Assembly (NCBI GenBank): GCA_030437565.1
Contig: CP129291.1
Span: forward strand, 186,001 to 250,000
Direction of reading: 5' to 3'
Source: Terrilactibacillus sp. S3-3
GTDB taxonomy: Bacteria; Bacillota; Bacilli; Bacillales; Sporolactobacillaceae
Length of the DNA stretch: 64,000 bases
Under the pieces are notes generated by a model that made no database searches, had not been told where the DNA came from, and saw only the letters and a list, made by a program, of their open reading frames with translations. The position numbers were made by a program, and so were the translations under genes. This document shows, in pieces, positions 3,781 through 53,745 of the stretch; position 1 is the first letter of the stretch, and every line of letters starts with the position of its first letter.

Positions 3781-4041
3781 TTAAAGAAAGCCACGCCGTT
3801 TTAAACGATGCATGACTCCAATTGCCGCATAACCGTAAAGATAACCCATGATGAGGCCGGCGATGATATCGTGGCGGCGGTTGAAAAAGATCGAAAAGAG
3901 CAGGTCGATCTTCAGTTCAGCGGCGGGAACGAACGGTTTTGGAATCGGAAACAGGCATTTGACAACTTGAGCCACGGCTAAAACAACGGGTATGATAATG
4001 AGGGTATCCTGGAAAACTTGAATAAATTGTCGGAAATTCAA
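3781..4041 (-). CDS. small membrane protein, unknown function
   Basis: About 86 residues from a TTG start at 4041 (AAAGG lies 9 nt upstream); a longer form reaching 4119 is possible. Two hydrophobic segments are visible, around LIIIPVVLAVAQVV and IIAGLIMGYLYGYAAIGVM, and the tail is basic (HRLKRRGF). I do not recognise a family. It lies convergent to usp and divergent from the acetyltransferase at 4147. Confidence 0.45.
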   Translation of the reverse strand: MNFRQFIQVFQDTLIIIPVVLAVAQVVKCLFPIPKPFVPAAELKIDLLFSIFFNRRHDIIAGLIMGYLYGYAAIGVMHRLKRRGFL

Positions 4042-4146
4042 GCTGAGTAACCTTTTTCTGTTATACCTTAGTATTGCGGCCGGCTGAATAAATATGCGGC
4101 AGGAGAAGGTGGCAAACAACTGCCATCAAAGAAAGCTGGGAAAAAC

Positions 4147-4983
4147 ATGACCGAAAAAGACGTTATACGGCAAACGCGAACGTTGGTGACGCGGGCTTCT
4201 CTAGTCCGTGATCTGAAGAGGCTGGGGATGAAGGCGGGGATGATCGTTCTCGTCCATACGTCAATGAGCAAATTGGGCTGGGTGTGCGGCGGTCCTGTCA
4301 CCATCATCAGAGCGCTGCATGATGTACTGACTGGGGAAGGAACACTGATTATGCCGGCTCATAGCGCCGATGTATCCGATCCAGAGGATTGGGGAAATCC
4401 TGCTGTGCCGCGAGATTGGTGGACGGATATTTATGACCAGATGCCGGTGTTCGATCCGTTGTGTACGCCGACATGCGGTATTGGCCGGGTGGCGGAGTGT
4501 TTTCGGACATTTCCGGGTGTGGAAAGAAGCAGCCATCCGATTCATTCATTCATTTACGGCGTGGGGAAAAGAACGGGAGACTATTTTATCCGGGCAAAGT
4601 CTGGACGATGGTTTGGGAGAGAACTCGCCGACAGGAAAATTGTATGAAAAGGGCGGCTATGTACTGCTTCTGGGCACCGGCTATGACAGCAATACCTCGA
4701 TGCATCTGGGAGAGTATCGCTCAAAATGTCTCCCTTCGGTAAAGCGCTCCAGTCCAGTTCTTGAGCGAGGCAGACGCGTGTGGAAACAGTATCTCGATCT
4801 TGACTTTCAAGAAGAACGTTTTCCGGAAATCGGCGCCGCTTTTGAAAGGCAAGGCGGCCGGGGGAGAGACGGTATGTACGTATCGGCCGCGTCGGGGCAG
4901 CTGAGGCGCGATTAATCGCTCAACGTGCTTTGGTGGATTTTACGGCTGATTTCATAAAAAGACATCCAGGGGGCGGCAGCTGA
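4147..4983 (+). CDS. aminoglycoside N(3)-acetyltransferase family protein (frameshifted)
   Basis: Antibiotic_NAT (AAC(3)) family, CoA-dependent acetyl transfer; B. subtilis YokD is the nearest type I can name. Visible motifs are VHTSMSKLGWVCGG near residue 35-50, GTLIMPAHS, RSSHPIHSF and LLLGTGYDSNTSMHLGEY. Frame breaks near 4545 (HSF | AWGKERET) and near 4885 are needed; the restored end reads RHPGGGS and stops at 4983, giving about 278 residues, the family length. Members are often intrinsic and of unclear natural substrate, so a resistance role is only inferred. Confidence 0.8.
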
Positions 4984-17261: not shown

Positions 17262-17466
17262 AAAGCGCCAGAACTATCCGACGACCGGAGATGAAAAAGG
17301 ATAGTTGACGAGGAAGAGGTTCATCGAATTTTTCGGCGGATGCCTCTCGGGAGTGCCACCCCCGTTAATCCATGCTTGAAAACAGGAAGGCGACTTTCTG
17401 GACAGAAGCTGGATCGTGGGCCAATTGAATACCTAAAAACAAGTGGGGTAAGATCTGCCCCTAGGT
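17262..17466 (+). ncRNA. glmS ribozyme/riboswitch
   Basis: The conserved core reads AGCGCCAGAACT, GTTGACGAGGA, TCATCGAATTTTTCGGCGG and ATGCCTC, as in the glucosamine-6-phosphate-activated self-cleaving ribozyme. Predicted cleavage lies between A17264 and G17265. It occupies the leader between glmM and glmS, its invariant place. A further hairpin (ACCTA-GGGG/CCCC-TAGGT, about 17430-17466) sits just before the glmS ribosome site. The 3' boundary is approximate. Confidence 0.95.
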
Positions 17467-17495
17467 GGTTTCTTGCCTCGCAAGGAGGAAATCAA

Positions 17496-19300
17496 ATGTG
17501 CGGAATCGTCGGATACATCGGAACGGAAGACACAAGCAGATTTTGCTGGATGGGCTAAGCAAACTTGAATACCGGGGCTATGACTCGGCGGGGATTGCGA
17601 TTCAGAATACGGACGGTGTCCATATTTTCAAACAGAAAGGCAGAATCGCGGCTCTAAGAGAAATCGTCGACCCTAATATCCATGCGACAATGGGTATCGG
17701 TCATACCCGCTGGGCGACGCACGGCGAACCAAGTACAAGAAATGCCCACCCGCACCAAAGTGCTTCGGGTCGATTCACGCTTGTTCATAATGGCGTCATC
17801 GAAAATTATGAACAGCTGAAGAAGAATTACCTTTCCGGTGCAGTGTTCAAGAGTGAAACCGACACGGAAGTACTGGCACAGCTCATTGAACATTTTGTAG
17901 GCGGCGGTTTGGAAGTTGAAGCCGCTTTGCGGCAAACATTGCGGCTTGTTCACGGCTCCTACGCAATCGCGCTGCTGGACAGCGAAGATAACGACACCAT
18001 TTATGTCGGCAAAAACAAAAGCCCGCTGCTCATCGCGTCGTCGGTGACGGTTTTAACGTCGTTGCCAGCGACGCAACGGCCATGATTCAGCTGACCAGAG
18101 AATATGTTGAATTAATGGATGAGGAAGTTGTTGTTCTCAAAAGAGACAGCTATACGATCATGGATTTGGACGGTAATGTCAAAACCCGCAAGTCTTACAC
18201 GGTGACGTTCGATGCCAGCGATACGGAAAAGGGCGCCTACCCGCATTACATGATCAAGGAAATCGATGAGCAGCCGGCGGTGCTGCGAAAACTGCTTACG
18301 GCTTACAGTGACGGCAAGGGCGGCATCGCGCTCGATCCGGCAATCCGCACAGCTGTTCAAGCGGCCGACCGCTTATATATCGTCGCCTGCGGCACGAGTT
18401 ATCACGCGGGTCTTGTCGGCAAGCAGCTGATTGAAAAAATAGCCGGCATTCCGACAGAAGTTCACATTTCGAGCGAGTTTTCCTATAATACGCCGCTCCT
18501 GTCGAAAAAGCCGCTGTTTATCTTTATCTCACAAAGCGGGGGAAACAGCCGACAGCCGGGCTGTTCTTGTCAAAATGAAAAAGATGAGTTACCCGACATT
18601 GACACTGACCAATGTCGCTGGCTCGACGCTGTACCGGGAAGCGGATTATAAGCTGCTGCTCCATGCCGGCCCTGAAATCGCCGTCGCTTCAACGAAAGCC
18701 TATACGGCGCAAATCGCCGTGCTGGCTTTCATCGCTATCGACGCGGCAGCGGCCAAGGGCATCAAGCTGGACTTTGATCCGGTCCACGAACTGAGCATCG
18801 TGGCTCAGGCGATGGAGAGAATGGTCGATCAGAAGGAACTGATGGAAACGGTCGCCCGCAACTACTTGTCGATCACCCGCAACGCCTTTTATATCGGCCG
18901 CGGCCTGGATTACTACGTCTGCCTGGAAGCCGCTTTGAAACTGAAAGAAGTGTCCTATATCCAGGCGGAAGGCTTCGCCGGCGGTGAGCTCAAACACGGG
19001 ACGATCGCCTTGATTGAGGACGGCACGCCGGTTCTCGCGTTTGCGACGCAGGCCCATGTCAACAGCAGTATTCGCAGCAATGTCCAGGAAGTGACGACAC
19101 GCGGTGCCCGCGCCTGCATCATCAGCATGGAAGGCACGAACCGTCCGGGTGATCAAATCGTCCTCCCGAAAGTGCACGAATACTTCACGCCGCTTGTCAG
19201 CGCCATTCCGCTGCAGCTGATCGCCTACTATGCGGCGCTGCAAAACGAATGCGACGTCGACAAGCCAAGAAACCTCGCCAAATCGGTGACGGTGGAATAA
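17496..19300 (+). CDS. glmS: glutamine-fructose-6-phosphate aminotransferase (frameshifted)
   Basis: Makes glucosamine-6-phosphate from fructose-6-phosphate and glutamine. The N-terminal nucleophile Cys follows the start (MCGIVGYIG); the amidotransferase domain carries [11 protein letters not shown] and VHNGVIENY; two SIS domains follow with [21 protein letters not shown] and the terminal KSVTVE. Breaks lie near 17537, 18030 and in the G-run near 18538. About 601 codons restored, the normal length. AAGGAGG ends 7 nt before ATG 17496. Controlled by the upstream ribozyme. Confidence 0.96.
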
Positions 19301-20818: not shown

Positions 20819-22056
20819 ATGACTCAATTACAGATTACTCTAGATGAGCAACTTTTGCATCAATTATTTCTTGGTAATTCTAAAGAATCGGGCATGAATA
20901 TCCTTTTGGAGACGATTTTAAATCAAGTTTTAAAAGCACAGGCCGGCGAGCAGGTGAGCGCCGAAAAGTACGAACGCAGTGAGGCACGGACGGACTACCG
21001 TAACGGCTCGTATCCCCGTCAACTCAAGACGGCGTGGGTACTCTTTCACTCAATGTTCCCCGCCTGCGTAATGGCCATTTTTCTACTGATCTCTTTAAGC
21101 GTTACCAGCGCAGTGAGCAGGCGCTGGTTCTATCCCTAATGGAGATGGTTATTAACGGCGTCTCCACACGTCGCGTAAGTCAAATTACTGAAGAGCTTTG
21201 TGGCACAGACTTTTCGAAAACGACTGTATCGGATCTTTGCGGGCAGCTGGATCCAGTGGTTAAAGGCTGGAATAACCGTCCTTTGAGGGGCAACTATCCG
21301 TTCCTATTCGTTGATGCGGTTTATACGAAGGTACGAGAAAACGGGCGTGTCCGCTCCTGTGGCGTGCTGATCAGCTACGGTATCAACGACAAAGGATACC
21401 GAACGATTCTAGGTCTGAAAATCGATGACAGCGAAAGCACCGACGCCTGGAAAAATTATTTTGACTGGCTGAAATCACGCGGTCTAAAAGGCGTTGACAT
21501 GGTGATCAGCGATGACCACGGCGGTCTCGTGAGTGCGGTTCAAAAAGCGTTTCAAGGGGCTACTTGGCAGCGGTGTCAGGCTCACTTCCTGCGCAATGTC
21601 CATGATCGGTTGCCAAAAGCTCTCAAAAGCGAAGGAACCGAACAAGTGAAGGCGATTCTCTATGCGCCGAATCTGGAAGTCGCTCGAACCTTGCTTAATG
21701 CTTTTCTAAAGGATTATCAGGACAAAGCACCAAAAGTGACGGAGCTTGTGGAGGATGCCTTTGATGACGTGACGGCGGTGCTTCCTCTACCAGAACCCTA
21801 TCGACGTCGCCTCCGGACAACTAACGGGATGGAACGGCTCAATGAGGAATTTCGCCGTCGGGAACGGGTTATCCGTATTTTCCCTAACCGCCAATCTGTG
21901 ATTCGTCTGATGGGCTCTGTTCTCATGGAGAAGGACGAAAAATGGATAGAAGGACGCCACTATCTGAAAATGGAAGACTATTTTGAATGGAGGGCCAAAC
22001 AGCCAAAATCACCTGATCGTTCGAGTAACGTAATAACAACTCTTTATCCAGGATAA
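20819..22056 (+). pseudogene. IS256-family (Mutator) transposase, copy 1
   Basis: DDE transposase of the Mutator group, about 410 residues restored. Acidic residues are visible in FLFVDAVYTKV, VDMVISDDHGG and near MERLNEEFRRR. One base is missing near 21028 (RQLKT | RVGTLSLNVPRL; the other two copies read correctly there). AAAGGAGAG precedes ATG 20819. Confidence 0.92.
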
Positions 22057-25132: not shown

Positions 25133-26634
25133 AGTTGAGCCAGTATAATTGTGTAAAAAGGGTTATCTGAATATGAGAAAATGTTAGACCGGGTTTCTGT
25201 TTTTCTGGAGGGGGCTGGCCAGCCCCCTCCAGAAAAACAGCAGGATTTTATTTACTCGTCTCTTTCATTTTTTTCATAGAAAATGAGCCAGAGCCCGTCA
25301 TCTTAGTTAGAATAGAGTTAACCAAACCAATTCTAAAGGAGAGATTTCGGGATGACTCAATTACAGATTACTCTAGATGAGCAACTTTTGCATCAATTAT
25401 TTCTTGGTAATTCTAAAGAATCGGGCATGAATATCCTTTTGGAGACGATTTTAAATCAAGTTTTAAAAGCACAGGCCGGCGAGCAGGTGAGCGCCGAAAA
25501 GTACGAACGCAGTGAGGCACGGACGACTACCGTAACGGCTCGTATCCCCGTCAACTCAAGACGCGCGTGGGTACTCTTTCACTCAATGTTCCCCGCCTGC
25601 GTAATGGCCATTTTTCTACTGATCTCTTTAAGCGTTACCAGCGCAGTGAGCAGGCGCTGGTTCTATCCCTAATGGAGATGGTTATTAACGGCGTCTCCAC
25701 ACGTCGCGTAAGTCAAATTACTGAAGAGCTTTGTGGCACAGACTTTTCGAAAACGACTGTATCGGATCTTTGCGGGCAGCTGGATCCAGTGGTTAAAGGC
25801 TGGAATAACCGTCCTTTGAGGGGCAACTATCCGTTCCTATTCGTTGATGCGGTTTATACGAAGGTACGAGAAAACGGGCGTGTCCGCTCCTGTGGCGTGC
25901 TGATCAGCTACGGTATCAACGACAAAGGATACCGAACGATTCTAGGTCTGAAAATCGATGACAGCGAAAGCACCGACGCCTGGAAAAATTATTTTGACTG
26001 GCTGAAATCACGCGGTCTAAGGCGTTGTTGACATGGTGATCAGCGATGACCACGGCGGTCTCGTGAGTGCGGTTCAAAAAGCGTTTCAAGGGGCTACTTG
26101 GCAGCGGTGTCAGGCTCACTTCCTGCGCAATGTCCATGATCGGTTGCCAAAAGCTCTCAAAAGCGAAGGAACCGAACAAGTGAAGGCGATTCTCTATGCG
26201 CCGAATCTGGAAGTCGCTCGAACCTTGCTTAATGCTTTTCTAAAGGATTATCAGGACAAAGCACCAAAAGTGACGGAGCTTGTGGAGGATGCCTTTGATG
26301 ACGTGACGGCGGTGCTTCCTCTACCAGAACCCTATCGACGTCGCCTCCGGACAACTAACGGGATGGAACGGCTCAATGAGGAATTTCGCCGTCGGGAACG
26401 GGTTATCCGTATTTTCCCTAACCGCCAATCTGTGATTCGTCTGATGGGCTCTGTTCTCATGGAGAAGGACGAAAAATGGATAGAAGGACGCCACTATCTG
26501 AAAATGGAAGACTATTTTGAATGGGGCCAAACAGCCAAAATCACCTGATCGTTCGAGTAACGTAACAACTCTTTATCCAGGATAATCACTCTATCTTAGC
26601 TAAGGTGAATTTACACATAAAAAAAGACTTGACC
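25133..26634 (+). mobile_element. IS256-family insertion sequence, copy 2
   Basis: Same element as copy 1, flanked by an 8-bp duplication GGAATGAG (25125-25132 and 26635-26642). Interrupts a YwaF-like gene. The intact T-run/CA junction here (CTTTCATTTTTTTC) shows that copy 1's long T-run at 20729 is aberrant. Confidence 0.95.
25352..26585 (+). pseudogene. IS256-family transposase, copy 2
   Basis: Same transposase as copy 1 with its own breaks: a lost base near 25523 (EART | DYRNGSYP), a disturbed AAAAGG near 26019 (SRGL | KGVDMV) and two lost bases near 26525 (FEW | RAKQPK). These sites are intact in the other two copies. Confidence 0.9.
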
Positions 26635-29709: not shown

Positions 29710-32335
<2,626 letters not shown>

Positions 32336-32354
32336 TCTATATCTCTCCTAACCA

Positions 32355-32528: not shown

Positions 32529-32674
32529 CAACCCCAACTTCCTTCACCAAAAAAACATTTGACAAGAGCTTTTCAACATGCTATAATTAAAGTGTAAAAT
32601 GAGGTATTTTTAGATATTTTGTCTTGACAGAGATGTAATCTTATTATATCGTTGTGTCTGTTTTTGTGCAATAA

Positions 32675-32706
32675 AAAGAACCTGGTAAAGCTGCCCAGGT
32701 TCTTTC
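32675..32706. terminator. hairpin terminator between rph and the TnpB element
   Basis: AAAGAACCTGG/CCAGGTTCTTT stem with T/A-rich flanks on both sides, able to work in either direction. Confidence 0.65.
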
Positions 32707-32901
32707 TTAATTTCCTGCGGGAATCCGTTGGTTCAACTAACTAAAGCAGCGTATCAGTTAAAATTTATCGTAATTCGGCAGAAGACTCCCGCTTCAAGTG
32801 TTGCTAAGCGGGAGATGAATGCCATCTGCTAGTTGCAACTCCCGTTTCTGTCATGCTATAATATTCACGAACATAAGTTCTGCGTATGGGGGGCGAACAC
32901 T

Positions 32902-34084
32902 ATGCTGGTCAACAAAGCCTATAAGTTTCGCATCTTTCCAAACAAAAAACAGGTGGGACTCATCAACAAAACCATCGGCTGTTCTCGATTTGTGTTTAAT
33001 TTCTTTCTGGGTAAGCAGAAAGAAAAAGATTCCACTGGCAGCAGATTGTCGAAGAAATGTATCAAAACGGCCAGATTCCAGCTAACTCTTGGAAAGGTGA
33101 ACGCCTCAACAAATATGAAACAGTCAAAGCCCTTCCTGAACTCAAGAGCCACTCTGCTTTTCTAAAAGAAGTGGACAGTATCGCCTTGCAAAAATCTGTT
33201 GAAAACTTGGCGGATGCCTATCGCCGATACTACAAAAAACAAACCAAATACCCGCGTTTTAAATCAAAGAAACATCCGATTCAGTCGTACACAACGAAGA
33301 TGGTCAATCAGAATATTGCGGTCATTGGAAACCATATCAAACTGCCGAAACTTGGTCTGGTTCGTTTTGCCAAAAGCCGCGATGTACAAGGCAGGATTAT
33401 GAATGCCACAATCAGGCGGCATCCCTCCGGCAAATACTTTGTATCAATAGGCACCGAGGCAGAAGTTTCCGCATGGCCGAAAACCCATTCAGCTGTTGGC
33501 ATTGATGTCGGACTCAAAAACTTTGCGATTCTCTCGGATGGGACAGTACAGTACACACCAACCTCAAGTTTTTCCGCACCTTGGAAGAAAAATTGGTCAA
33601 AGCCCAGCGGATAATGAGCAGGCGTTCTATGGGCGGGTCCAATTGGTACAAAGCCAAAATCAAAGTCGCCCGTATCCACGAAAAGATGGCCAATGCACGG
33701 AAAGATTACTTAGACAAAATCTCCACCGAAATTGTCAAAAACCACGATGTGATCGGGATGGAGAATTTGTCTGTATCCAACCTGTTACAAAATCATCATC
33801 TTGCAAAAGCGATCAGTGAAGTGTCTTGGTCACGATTCAAAACAATGATTGAATATAAAGCCAAGTGGTATGGCAAGTGCGTCGTTACGGTGGCGAAAAA
33901 CTTTCCTTCCAGCCAGCTTTGTTCTTGTTGCGGCTATCAAAATAAAGACGTCAAGCAGCTCGGATTGCGTGAATGGGACTGCCCAAAATGCCATGCCCAT
34001 CATGATCGAGATATGAACGCAAGTATCAATCTTAAAAATGAAGCGATAAGGCTTCTGACCGCAGGGACTGCGGGGATCGCCTAA
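32902..34084 (+). CDS. tnpB: IS200/IS605-family TnpB RNA-guided nuclease (frameshifted)
   Basis: TnpB (OrfB) nuclease. RuvC residues are visible: Asp in [11 protein letters not shown], Glu in [10 protein letters not shown] and Asp in [12 protein letters not shown]; the zinc finger is CSCCG...CPKC. GGGGGG precedes ATG 32902. Breaks near 33035 (KEKD | [11 protein letters not shown]) and 33560 (VQYTP | KFFRTLEEK). About 394 residues, the normal TnpB length. No TnpA is present, so the element is non-autonomous. A 5' hairpin CCCGCTT/AAGCGGG at about 32787-32811 may belong to the left end. A partial inverted copy lies at 53370-53745. Confidence 0.92.
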
Positions 34085-34166
34085 TCCATAACCGGCGGCT
34101 GCGCCGGTGTTCTTAGGAATCTCCCACTTCAAACAAGCCAAAGGTTGTTAAGTAGGGGTAGTTCAA
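34085..34166 (+). ncRNA. putative omega-RNA 3' part / right end of TnpB element
   Basis: Two hairpins follow the tnpB stop: ACCGGC/GCCGGT (34091-34108) and CTCCCACTT/AAGTAGGGG (34121-34158). The element appears to end near GTTCAA at 34166, since the next base starts continuous IscB coding. In TnpB systems the omega-RNA covers this region and takes its guide from the DNA just beyond, here the IscB-derived sequence from 34167. Confidence 0.6.
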
Positions 34167-34167
34167 T

Positions 34168-34464
34168 CGTAAGAACAATCGCCAATTACACAAAGCCACC
34201 ATTCTAAAAGGTGGTAAACGGAAATCTAACAAGGCAGAACGCTTTGTCAAAGGATTCCAGCTATTCGATAAGGTACGTTTTGAAGGACAGGAATGTTTCA
34301 TCTTTGGCAGACGGAGCAGTGGGTATTTTGACCTTCGCTTGTTGGATGGCACAAAAATCCATGCGTCTGCCAGTTGGAAAAAGCTACAACGAGTAGAATA
34401 TGCAAGCACTTTGTTAATTGAAAGGAGAAAAGGCGATTTCTCCCCGACTTACACTACCGCTTAG
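34168..34464 (+). pseudogene. iscB: IscB C-terminal fragment (5' truncated)
   Basis: One uninterrupted frame of 98 codons without a start. It contains KNNRQLHKATILKGGKRKS, FVKGFQLFDKVRFEG, FIFGRRSSGYFDLR, DGTKIHASASWKKL and LIERR, the C-terminal, target-interacting part of the Cas9-ancestor nuclease IscB. The RuvC and HNH regions are missing because the TnpB element abuts it at 34166/34167. A 9-bp perfect end hairpin follows. Confidence 0.85.
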
Positions 34465-34473
34465 AAGTCGGGG
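34442..34473 (+). repeat. right-end hairpin of the IscB element
   Basis: CCCCGACTT/AAGTCGGGG, a 9-bp perfect stem overlapping the iscB stop, typical of IS200/IS605-superfamily right ends. Confidence 0.65.
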
Positions 34474-34512
34474 TCTCTCCTCGGCCAAAAATGATGAAAT
34501 CAAAGCAGAAGA

Positions 34513-34752: not shown

Positions 34753-34841
34753 AGATGATTTAGTCATTTCTAAAAGTGCTTCTGTAAAATTATTGAACAT
34801 TCCCGGAGAAAAAGAAAATATAGGTGCTGGTTAGTGCTTGT

Positions 34842-34962
34842 GCAGGCGTCACATCCTGTGGCAACGTCTGTGTGTCCTACATCCTGTGGGCCAGAGCTAA
34901 CAATCAGTGGGGGATGGAAGAAAACCCTCACTGGTTGAAGTGATTGAAGTTTCACTTTATTT
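34842..34962 (-). repeat. dispersed hairpin repeat, copy B
   Basis: Reverse strand reads GTGAAACTTCAATC, a hairpin with CAGTGAGGG/CCCCCACTG and loop TTCTTCCAT, then GTTAGCT and two CCACAGGATGT motifs. Matches copies A (314) and C (47151). Lies directly before the Ktr gene. Confidence 0.65.
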
Positions 34963-34980
34963 TTTGACTAAGGAGAAAAA

Positions 34981-36329
34981 ATGAAGAACTTAAAAAAAAG
35001 CCTGAATCCTCCAGAAATTCTCGTTTTAGGCTTCGCTTCATTTTAATTTTAATCCTTATAGGATCTTTCTTATTGACTCTGCCCATCGCTACAGAAAATG
35101 GCAGAGGGCTCTCGTTCTTAGATGCGTTATTTACTGCTACGTCGGCAACATGTGTGACAGGGCTTGTGGTTGTAGATACTGGTGATACATTTTCAACGTT
35201 TGGTGAATTAGTGATTCTCTCACTCATTCAACTTGGCGGTTTAGGATTTATGACTTTTGCAACCTTTTTATTCACCTTATTAGGGAAAAAAATCTCTTTA
35301 AAAGAAAGATTACTATTAAAAGAAGCCTTTAATGCCATTTCTGCAGCTGGTATTGTAAAATTAGTAATAAGGATTTTAATATTTACGTTAATCATGGAGA
35401 GTATCGGTGGAATCATTTTGTCGGTTCGATTTTCATTTGATATGCCGATTGGCCAAGCCATCTATTTTGGCTTTTTCCATTCAATTTCAAATTTTAATAA
35501 TGCAGGTTTTGATTTAATGGGTGGGTTCAATAGTCTCTCCTGAATACGTTGACGATCCATTTGTAGTGTTAACTGTTATTGCTTTAATCGTATTAGGGGG
35601 ACTAGGTTTTAGTGTAATAAATGAACTTTATGAGTATCGTAAAATACGCAGACTCTCACTTCATACAAAAGTTGTATTGAGTACAACTTTTATTCTTATA
35701 GTCGGGGCAAGCATTTTAATTTTTCTATTTGAGTATGGAAATGATAAAACTTTAGGTCCCTTATCTCCTACAGGAAAGGTTCTTGGAGCATTGTTCCAAA
35801 GTGTAACGCCAAGAACAGCTGGATCCAATACGTTATCGATAGCAGATCTAACTCATGCGACATTATTCTTAACCATTCTCCTCATGTTTATCGGCGGAGG
35901 TTCAGGATCAACTGCAGGAGGTATTAAAGTATCGACTTTCTCTGTTTTAATTGCAACCGTACTAACACAACTTAGAGGGAGAGAAGATGTCGTTTTATTT
36001 AAACGACGTATTGCAGTTAAAACGATACTAAAGCACTTACAGTTGCCATGAGTGGAATAATGATTGTGGTTATTGTTACCTTTTTGCTGAGTATAACTGA
36101 AAAAGGTCATGATGATTTTATTATGTATCTTTTTGAAGCGGCATCAGCATTTGGGACTGTCGGTCTCTCAATGGGATTAACGCCGGAGCTTTCTCCAATA
36201 GGTCGAATCATTATTATTTTTACAATGTTCGTAGGAAGATTAGGTCCGCTAACACTTGGATTTGCCATTTCAAAAAGAAATAAAAAAGAAGCTTATCGTC
36301 ATCCAAAGGGAGATATTATGATTGGTTAA
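34981..36329 (+). CDS. ktrB: KtrB/KtrD-type K+ transporter membrane subunit (frameshifted)
   Basis: Trk/Ktr/HKT family. Four pore loops are visible: ATSATCVTGLVV, SISNFNNAGFDLM, QSVTPRTAGSN and ASAFGTVGLSMG, with the GGGSGSTAGGIK intramembrane loop. Breaks near 35037, 35535 (GFNSL | PEYVDDPF) and 36033 (KTILK | ALTVAMSG). About 449 residues, as in B. subtilis KtrD. AAGGAGAAAAA precedes ATG 34981. The RCK subunit follows 22 nt later. B or D assignment cannot be decided by eye; the channel-first order is unlike ktrAB of B. subtilis. Confidence 0.92.
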
Positions 36330-38231: not shown

Positions 38232-40077
<1,846 letters not shown>

Positions 40078-49118: not shown

Positions 49119-50625
49119 GGTCAAGTCTTTTTTTTTATGTGTAAATTCACCTTAGCTAAGATAGAGTGATTATCCTGGATAAAGAGTTGTTACGTTACTC
49201 GAACGATCAGGTGATTTTGGCTGTTTGGCCCTCCATTCAAAATAGTCTTCCATTTTCAGATAGTGGCGTCCTTCTATCCATTTTTCGTCCTTCTCCATGA
49301 GAACAGAGCCCATCAGACGAATCACAGATTGGCGGTTAGGGAAAATACGGATAACCCGTTCCCGACGGCGAAATTCCTCATTGAGCCGTTCCATCCCGTT
49401 AGTTGTCCGGAGGCGACGTCGATAGGGTTCTGGTAGAGGAAGCACCGCCGTCACGTCATCAAAGGCATCCTCCACAAGCTCCGTCACTTTTGGTGCTTTG
49501 TCCTGATAATCCTTTAGAAAAGCATTAAGCAAGGTTGAGCGACTTCCAGATTCGGCGCATAGAGAATCGCCTTCACTTGTTCGGTTCCTTCGCTTTTGAG
49601 AGCTTTTGGCAACCGATCATGGACATTGCGCAGGAAGTGAGCCTGACACCGCTGCCAAGTAGCCCCTTGAAACGCTTTTTGAACCGCACTCACGAGACCG
49701 CCGTGGTCATCGCTGATCACCATGTCAACGCCTTTTAGACCGCGTGATTTCAGCCAGTCAAAATAATTTTTCCAGGCGTCGGTGCTTTCGCTGTCATCGA
49801 TTTTCAGACCTAGAATCGTTCGGTATCCTTTGTCGTTGATACCGTAGCTGATCAGCACGCCACAGGAGCGGACACGCCCGTTTTCTCGTACCTTCGTATA
49901 AACCGCATCAACGAATAGGAACGGATAGTTGCCCCTCAAAGGACGGTTATTCCAGCCTTTAACCACTGGATCCAGCTGCCCGCAAAGATCCGATACAGTC
50001 GTTTTCGAAAAGTCTGTGCCACAAAGCTCTTCTTCAGTAATTTGACTTACGCGACGTGTGGAGACGCCGTTAATAACCATCTCCATTAGGGATAGAACCA
50101 GCGCCTGCTCACTGCGCTGGTAACGCTTAAAGAGATCAGTAGAAAAATGGCCATTACGCAGGCGGGGAACATTGAGTGAAAGAGTACCCACGCGCGTCTT
50201 GAGTTGACGGGGATACGAGCCGTTACGGTAGTCCGTCCGTGCCTCACTGCGTTCGTACTTTTCGGCGCTCACCTGCTCGCCGGCCTGTGCTTTTAAAACT
50301 TGATTTAAAATCGTCTCCAAAAGGATATTCATGCCCGATTCTTTAGAATTACCAAGAAATAATTGATGCAAAAGTTGCTCATCTAGAGTAATCTGTAATT
50401 GAGTCATCCCGAAATCTCTCCTTTAGAATTGGTTTGGTTAACTCTATTCTAACTAAGATGACGGGCTCTGGCTCATTTTCTATGAAAAAAATGAAAGAGA
50501 CGAGTAAATAAAATCCTGCTGTTTTTCTGGAGGGGGCGGCCAGCCCCCTCCAGAAAAACAGAAACCCGGTCTAACATTTTCTCATATTCAGATAACCCTT
50601 TTTACACAATTATACTGGCTCAACT
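49119..50625 (-). mobile_element. IS256-family insertion sequence, copy 3
   Basis: Inverted copy, 1507 bp, flanked by an 8-bp duplication TGATTTTT (49111-49118 and 50626-50633). Intact ends. No recognised gene is broken by it. Confidence 0.95.
49170..50407 (-). pseudogene. IS256-family transposase, copy 3
   Basis: Same protein as the other copies, with a private break near 49535 (LEVA | RTLLNAF) and three extra bases giving one additional Glu near 50033 (TEEELCGTD instead of TEELCGTD). The first 290 codons are continuous here. Confidence 0.92.
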
Positions 50626-53369: not shown

Positions 53370-53745
53370 CAAATACAGGCAGCTTCTCTTCGGATTGTGA
53401 AATCTGATTGACCCTCTTCGTTGTGTACGACTGAATCGGATGTTTCTTTGATTTAAAACGCGGGGTTTTTTTTTTGTAGTATCGGCGATAGGCATCCGCC
53501 AAGTTTTCAACAGATTTTTGCAAGGCGATACTGTCCACTTCTTATAAAAAAAGCAGAGTGGCTCTTGAGTTCAGGAAGGGCTTTTACTGTTGTATATTTG
53601 TTGAGGCGTTCACCTTACCAAGAGTTAGCTGGAATCTGGCCATTTTGATACATTTCTTCGACAATCTGCTATTAGGCATCTTTTTCTTTCTGCTTACCCA
53701 GAAAGAAATTAAACACAAATCGGGAACAGCCGATGGTTTTGTTGA
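53370..53745 (-). pseudogene. tnpB: degenerate TnpB fragment
   Basis: Reverse strand matches tnpB at about 32970-33330 (for example CCGATTCAGTCGTACACAAC and TTCTGGGTAAGCAGAAAGAA), with many substitutions and indels. It covers about the first third of the protein and lacks all RuvC motifs. It sits where the paiB 5' end should be. Confidence 0.8.

What the first reader, a model, noticed from the sequence alone, without database searches (positions are those of the whole stretch)
32902..34490. TnpB element abutting an IscB 3' fragment
At 34166/34167 the TnpB right end switches directly to an uninterrupted IscB C-terminal frame (98 codons) with its own end hairpin. Two RNA-guided nuclease lineages of the IS200/IS605 superfamily are thus nested or recombined. 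The putative TnpB guide, taken from the flank, would be IscB sequence, so TnpB would target iscB copies.
Basis: partly seen in the sequence, partly recalled or inferred. Interest (0 to 1): 0.75.

Follow-up and report, generated by a model that had tools for sequence, protein, structure and literature searches.

The report
TnpB transposon inserted inside iscB remnant
A small bacterial jumping element carrying an RNA-guided nuclease gene (tnpB) landed inside the gene of a second, distantly related RNA-guided nuclease (iscB) of which only the tail end survives; this is an ordinary case of one transposon nested in another, although the pairing of the two nuclease families is a nice curiosity.

Summary
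The junction is real. A complete, repeated, ISDra2-like TnpB element (32769-34166; seven near full-length copies in the genome) ends exactly at TTCAA/34166, and the next base begins an IscB C-terminal frame. Joining 32768 to 34167 restores one in-frame IscB tail (NPLVQLTKAAYQLKF|IRKNNRQ...; 114 residues, 76% identical to Anoxybacillus amylolyticus IscB 306-419). So this is a clean insertion, without target duplication, 3' of TTTAT in an iscB gene, not a recombinant or functional pairing. The iscB is a dead remnant: residues 1 to about 303 (RuvC, HNH) and its omega-RNA end are gone. The predicted TnpB guide (34167-34182) is iscB sequence, because the guide is simply the insertion-site flank. 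No other target was seen: the genome's second IscB has 3 mismatches and no TTTAT, and iscB relatives carry TTTGT or TTCGT there. TnpB has two frameshifts, but neighbouring housekeeping genes are equally broken (noisy assembly) and a sister copy is intact, so inactivity cannot be concluded. Verdict: nested insertion sequence, new example of a known kind; low interest.

The parts
32717..32768 (+). left piece of the interrupted iscB (codons for NPLVQLTKAAYQLKF plus the first two bases of the next codon); iscB similarity stops upstream at about 32717
   Evidence: joined-flank tblastn and blastn; best-scoring of 127,898 positions of the window against the aligned IscB residues
32764..32768 (+). TTTAT, left cleavage/insertion motif and presumed TAM
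   Evidence: directly 5' of the left end in the window copy and in L020, L021, L024; variants in L019 and L023; L022 has a different left end
32769..34166 (+). complete TnpB-only IS200/IS605-type element, 1398 bp
   Evidence: six other near full-length copies in the genome at 96-98% identity with unrelated flanks
32786..32814 (+). left-end hairpin CTCCCGCTT..AAGCGGGAG
   Evidence: sequence
32902..34084 (+). tnpB reading frame, broken by two indels in this assembly; sister copy L019 reads through 392 aa
   Evidence: Pfam and NCBIfam matches; integrity check; PDB match of the sister copy to TnpB 8bf8, E=2e-88
34050..34166 (+). presumed omega-RNA/reRNA scaffold at the right end, overlapping the 3' end of tnpB
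   Evidence: RNAalifold on 25 right ends with several compensated pairs; fold z-score -4.1 (which includes the 16-base guide)
34167..34182 (+). presumed 16-nt guide, TCGTAAGAACAATCGC = iscB codons
   Evidence: inference from the right end at 34166 and the 16-nt guide of ISDra2 reRNA (PMC8612924); only exact copy in the genome
34167..34464 (+). right piece of the interrupted iscB, C-terminal 98 codons plus stop
   Evidence: 82% identity to A. amylolyticus IscB 320-419; 39 related loci
34442..34473 (+). right-end hairpin of the IscB element (CCCCGACTT..AAGTCGGGG)
   Evidence: sequence and comparison with other copies
34474..34498 (+). rest of the IscB element's right end, terminating ..GATGAA
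   Evidence: common end of about ten IscB elements with different flanks

Best explanation
A TnpB-only IS200/IS605 element (ISDra2-like TnpB; mobilised in trans by a Y1 transposase) inserted by single-strand peel-and-paste 3' of a TTTAT pentamer in the 3' part of an iscB gene, without duplicating the target. The host iscB element also lost everything upstream of about residue 304, before or after the insertion, leaving a dead remnant. If TnpB is active, its right-end omega-RNA would carry 34167-34182 (iscB codons) as guide and would cut only the empty allele TTTAT|TCGTAAGAACAATCGC left after excision, restoring the element by homologous repair. Shown: element ends, copies, both iscB flanks, in-frame rejoining, missing N-terminal part, conserved RNA structure. 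Inferred: trans mobilisation, omega-RNA processing, guide use, order of events.
For: Seven near full-length copies define the ends 32769/34166, and relatives in other genomes share the TTCAA end. Joining 32768|34167 gives a continuous in-frame IscB alignment, 87 of 114 identical. The left-flank peptide is the best of 127,898 positions (score 44, next 35), at the exact residue and frame required. IscB identity. IscB residues 1-303 are absent here. TnpB family. Right-end RNA. Y1 transposase genes elsewhere in the genome. TTTAT is accepted as a TAM by ISDra2 and ISYmu1 TnpB (PMC12908284); the guide derives from the right flank, the TAM equals the insertion motif, and the donor joint is the proposed target (PMC8612924).
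Against: No empty iscB allele with the same TTTAT site was found in any collection searched; close homologs have GTT where this one would have ATT. The left iscB piece is short (about 52 bases). L019 and L023 do not show a perfect TTTAT, and L022 has a divergent left end. tnpB in this copy is frameshifted.
Confidence: 0.93

Rival explanations
1. Recombination or deletion fused a TnpB right end to an IscB 3' end, with no insertion into iscB.
Against: The left flank encodes the immediately preceding iscB codons in the right frame, and the TnpB element has both of its own ends.
Confidence: 0.03
2. TnpB targeted iscB selectively: the element uses an iscB-derived guide to attack or home into competing IscB elements.
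For: The guide would be iscB sequence; the genome's second IscB has the homologous codons with 13 of 16 matches.
Against: That copy has CAATT rather than TTTAT next to it; relatives have TTTGT or TTCGT and mismatches; none of the fetched IscB loci contains a TnpB match; none of the other copies of this element lies in an iscB (one search finds only one other IscB locus, at 1463.6 kb, away from all copies).
Confidence: 0.03
3. Assembly artefact: two repeat families were wrongly joined at this place.
For: The assembly is noisy: 76% complete, 9% contaminated, and glmS, thiC, the TrkH-type transporter and PEP synthase are frameshifted.
Against: A misassembly would not leave matching iscB codons on both sides of the precise element ends in frame, and the IscB tail occurs only once in the genome.
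Confidence: 0.03

Closest known systems
ISDra2-type TnpB (Deinococcus radiodurans; PDB 8bf8, 8h1j)
   Same: Full-length TnpB homology (E=2e-88 for the intact sister copy), structured right-end RNA, pentanucleotide directly 5' of the left end
   Different: TTTAT rather than TTGAT at the left end; no tnpA in the element (ISDra2 carries one); this copy frameshifted in the assembly
IscB (NCBIfam NF040563; Anoxybacillus amylolyticus WP_066327738.1; OgeuIscB 7xht)
   Same: C-terminal 114 codons at 76% identity to the Anoxybacillus protein, and the right-end hairpin of this IscB element family
   Different: Only the tail remains; all of the region covered by NF040563 (RuvC, HNH) and the upstream omega-RNA are missing, and the tail is interrupted by the TnpB element
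Nested insertion sequences (IS within IS)
   Same: One element sits precisely within another; flanks re-join in frame
   Different: Both elements are of IS200/IS605 type and carry RNA-guided nuclease genes; no description of a TnpB-in-iscB nest was found in the paper library searched, which is partial

Membership tests
IS200/IS605 TnpB element | TnpB protein with OrfB_IS605 and Cas12f1-like_TNB domains | tested here: met
   (NF038281, 551 bits in the intact sister copy, cut-off 425)
IS200/IS605 TnpB element | Precise ends, insertion 3' of a short motif without target duplication | tested here: met
   TTTAT|CGTAATT .. TTCAA|, flanks re-join in frame without duplication
IS200/IS605 TnpB element | Right-end omega-RNA with conserved structure | tested here: met
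   25 right ends, several compensated pairs (e.g. G-C/C-G at columns 107-112, G-C/A-U at 105-114, A-U/C-G at 93-123); transcription not testable, no control for relatedness run
IS200/IS605 TnpB element | Y1 transposase in the element or in trans | tested here: inconclusive
   none in the element; several PF01797 matches elsewhere in the genome, compatibility not tested
IS200/IS605 TnpB element | RNA-guided cleavage next to the TAM | not testable with these tools
   needs biochemistry
IscB | Sequence homology to IscB over the C-terminal part | tested here: met
IscB | RuvC and HNH nuclease domains | tested here: not met
   residues before about 304 absent at the locus; it is a remnant, not a working IscB
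IscB | Upstream omega-RNA at the left end | tested here: not met
   iscB similarity stops at about 32717; the sequence upstream matches the unrelated sRNA family ncr1015

The most novel reading that the evidence does not exclude
The iscB-derived guide lets this TnpB cut related iscB genes with relaxed TAM or mismatches, so one RNA-guided transposon family polices or homes into another.
Probability: 0.03. Interest if true: 0.65.

Novelty: new member of a known kind. Interest (0 to 1): 0.22.

Why it matters
It shows an RNA-guided transposon inserted in another and gives a natural case where a TnpB guide would be iscB sequence. If cross-cleavage were shown it would be a direct conflict between the two nuclease lineages; as it stands it illustrates how one element's sequence becomes another's guide by insertion alone.

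Tried and rejected
Fusion or recombination of TnpB and IscB: rejected by the left flank. Intact IscB of the same family elsewhere in the genome: none; only a diverged, frameshifted IscB at 1463618-1464818. TnpB inserted in other IscB loci: none among those fetched. Empty site with TTTATTCGTAARAAYAAYCG in viral contigs: none. Rfam omega-RNA match: none; Rfam hit only ncr1015 and a sub-threshold Bacillaceae-1 RNA nearby. Calling tnpB a pseudogene: rejected as unsafe, since housekeeping genes in the same window are split the same way. The single weak PDB hit of the IscB tail (an amylase) is taken as chance. The name of the organism was not established.

Full report
What is there. Alignment of the window copy with the six other near full-length copies in the same 3.6-Mb genome puts the TnpB element at 32769-34166: TTTAT|CGTAATT... 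on the left...GGGGTAGTTCAA| on the right, with unrelated flanks in each copy. Eighteen of 29 relatives taken from other genomes of the order end in the same TTCAA at the same aligned position; most others diverge before the end or have TTCAA slightly displaced. The protein is an ISDra2-like TnpB: Pfam OrfB_IS605 and Cas12f1-like_TNB, NCBIfam NF038281, PDB TnpB 8bf8 at E=2e-88 for the intact 392-aa sister copy. The element itself holds no Y1 transposase, but the genome has several such genes elsewhere, so mobilisation in trans is assumed.

The IscB part. The frame from 34167 to 34464 is 82% identical to residues 320-419 of the annotated IscB of Anoxybacillus amylolyticus and up to about 90% identical to IscB loci in Anoxybacillus, Geobacillus and Aneurinibacillus. 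The full homolog is a bona fide IscB (NF040563, 394 bits against a cut-off of 175; PDB IscB structures). The model's match ends at residue 303, which explains why the fragment itself hits no profile. The IscB element's right end is at about 34498, from the shared end of about ten copies with different flanks.

The left flank is iscB too. Joining 32768 to 34167 produces a single in-frame match to IscB residues 306-419, 87 of 114 identical, no gap: NPLVQLTKAAYQLKF|IRKNNRQLHK, against NPLATPSDTVFLLKFVRKNNRQLHK. Scored against eight distinct aligned homolog peptides, the 17 left-flank residues are the best of 127,898 positions on both strands of the window (44; next 35), at the one position and frame that an insertion requires. 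Among the boundary choices considered, only TTTAT|...|TCGT keeps the iscB frame. This is a clean insertion without target duplication, as expected for peel-and-paste transposition (PMC8612924).

State of the host iscB. Similarity stops at about 32717. Everything before about residue 304 is absent at the locus, and the only other IscB of the genome (1463618-1464818, diverged, frameshifted) is a different lineage. Upstream lies a match to the sRNA family ncr1015 (32592-32710). Whether the 5' part was lost before or after the TnpB insertion cannot be told.

State of tnpB. Two indels break the frame here. They cannot be read as decay with confidence: glmS, thiC, a TrkH-type potassium transporter and a PEP synthase in the same window are each split into consecutive frames, and the assembly is rated 76% complete with 9% contamination. 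One sister copy (509.9 kb) is open throughout.

Guide and target. In ISDra2 the reRNA is the right end plus about 16 nt of flank and cuts next to the same motif that is used for insertion (PMC8612924). TTTAT is given as a TAM for ISDra2 and ISYmu1 TnpB (PMC12908284). The right end has a conserved RNA fold with compensated pairs over 25 sequences (z=-4.1 for the window sequence including the guide). The counts were not controlled for relatedness. The guide would then be 34167-34182, TCGTAAGAACAATCGC. It occurs exactly once in the genome. The second IscB has TCGTAAGAAGAAACGG after CAATT; other close iscB genes have TTTGT or TTCGT at the motif and two or more mismatches. So the expected target is the empty allele of this insertion, i.e. 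ordinary self-retention, not attack on iscB elements. The TAM of this particular TnpB is inferred, not measured.

Rarity. IscB matches of this kind were seen in 8 of 397 genomes of the order, this TnpB DNA in 121 of 397. None of the fetched IscB loci carries a TnpB match, so the nest is uncommon but needs no special explanation. I found no description of a TnpB-in-iscB nest in the papers searched; that library is partial.

Verdict. Observation right, nesting right, functional inference (TnpB targets iscB copies) not supported. A new example of a known kind.

Noticed in passing
32592-32710: Match to Rfam ncr1015 (Bacillus sRNA), 84 bits against a gathering score of 60, ending just upstream of where iscB similarity begins; a weaker minus-strand match at 32670-32770.
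   Followed up: no
34833-34890: Sub-threshold match (32.8 vs 35 bits) to the Bacillaceae-1 RNA family, just upstream of the potassium transporter gene.
   Followed up: no
53403-53745 (minus): A truncated piece of the same TnpB element (93% identity to element bases near the start of tnpB) lies in the same window.
   Followed up: partly
17465-19300, 38357-40068, 31007-32347, 34968-36329: Housekeeping genes (glmS, thiC, PEP synthase, TrkH-type transporter) are split into consecutive frames, which suggests many indel errors in this assembly; other frameshift-based findings in this genome need care.
   Followed up: yes
21034-22056, 25567-26548, 49514-50407 (minus): Three near-identical long frames in the window that look like an IS256-type transposase; not tested against profiles.
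   Followed up: no
L040 (G000:C1:1463618-1464818): A second, diverged IscB in the same genome, itself frameshifted in the assembly.
   Followed up: partly
L060 near 4001-4288; L059 near 3949-4279: Other truncated iscB tails: L060 keeps only residues from about 339 on, and L059 joins IscB residues 163-179 to 322-414, an internal deletion. No TnpB is involved in either.
   Followed up: partly
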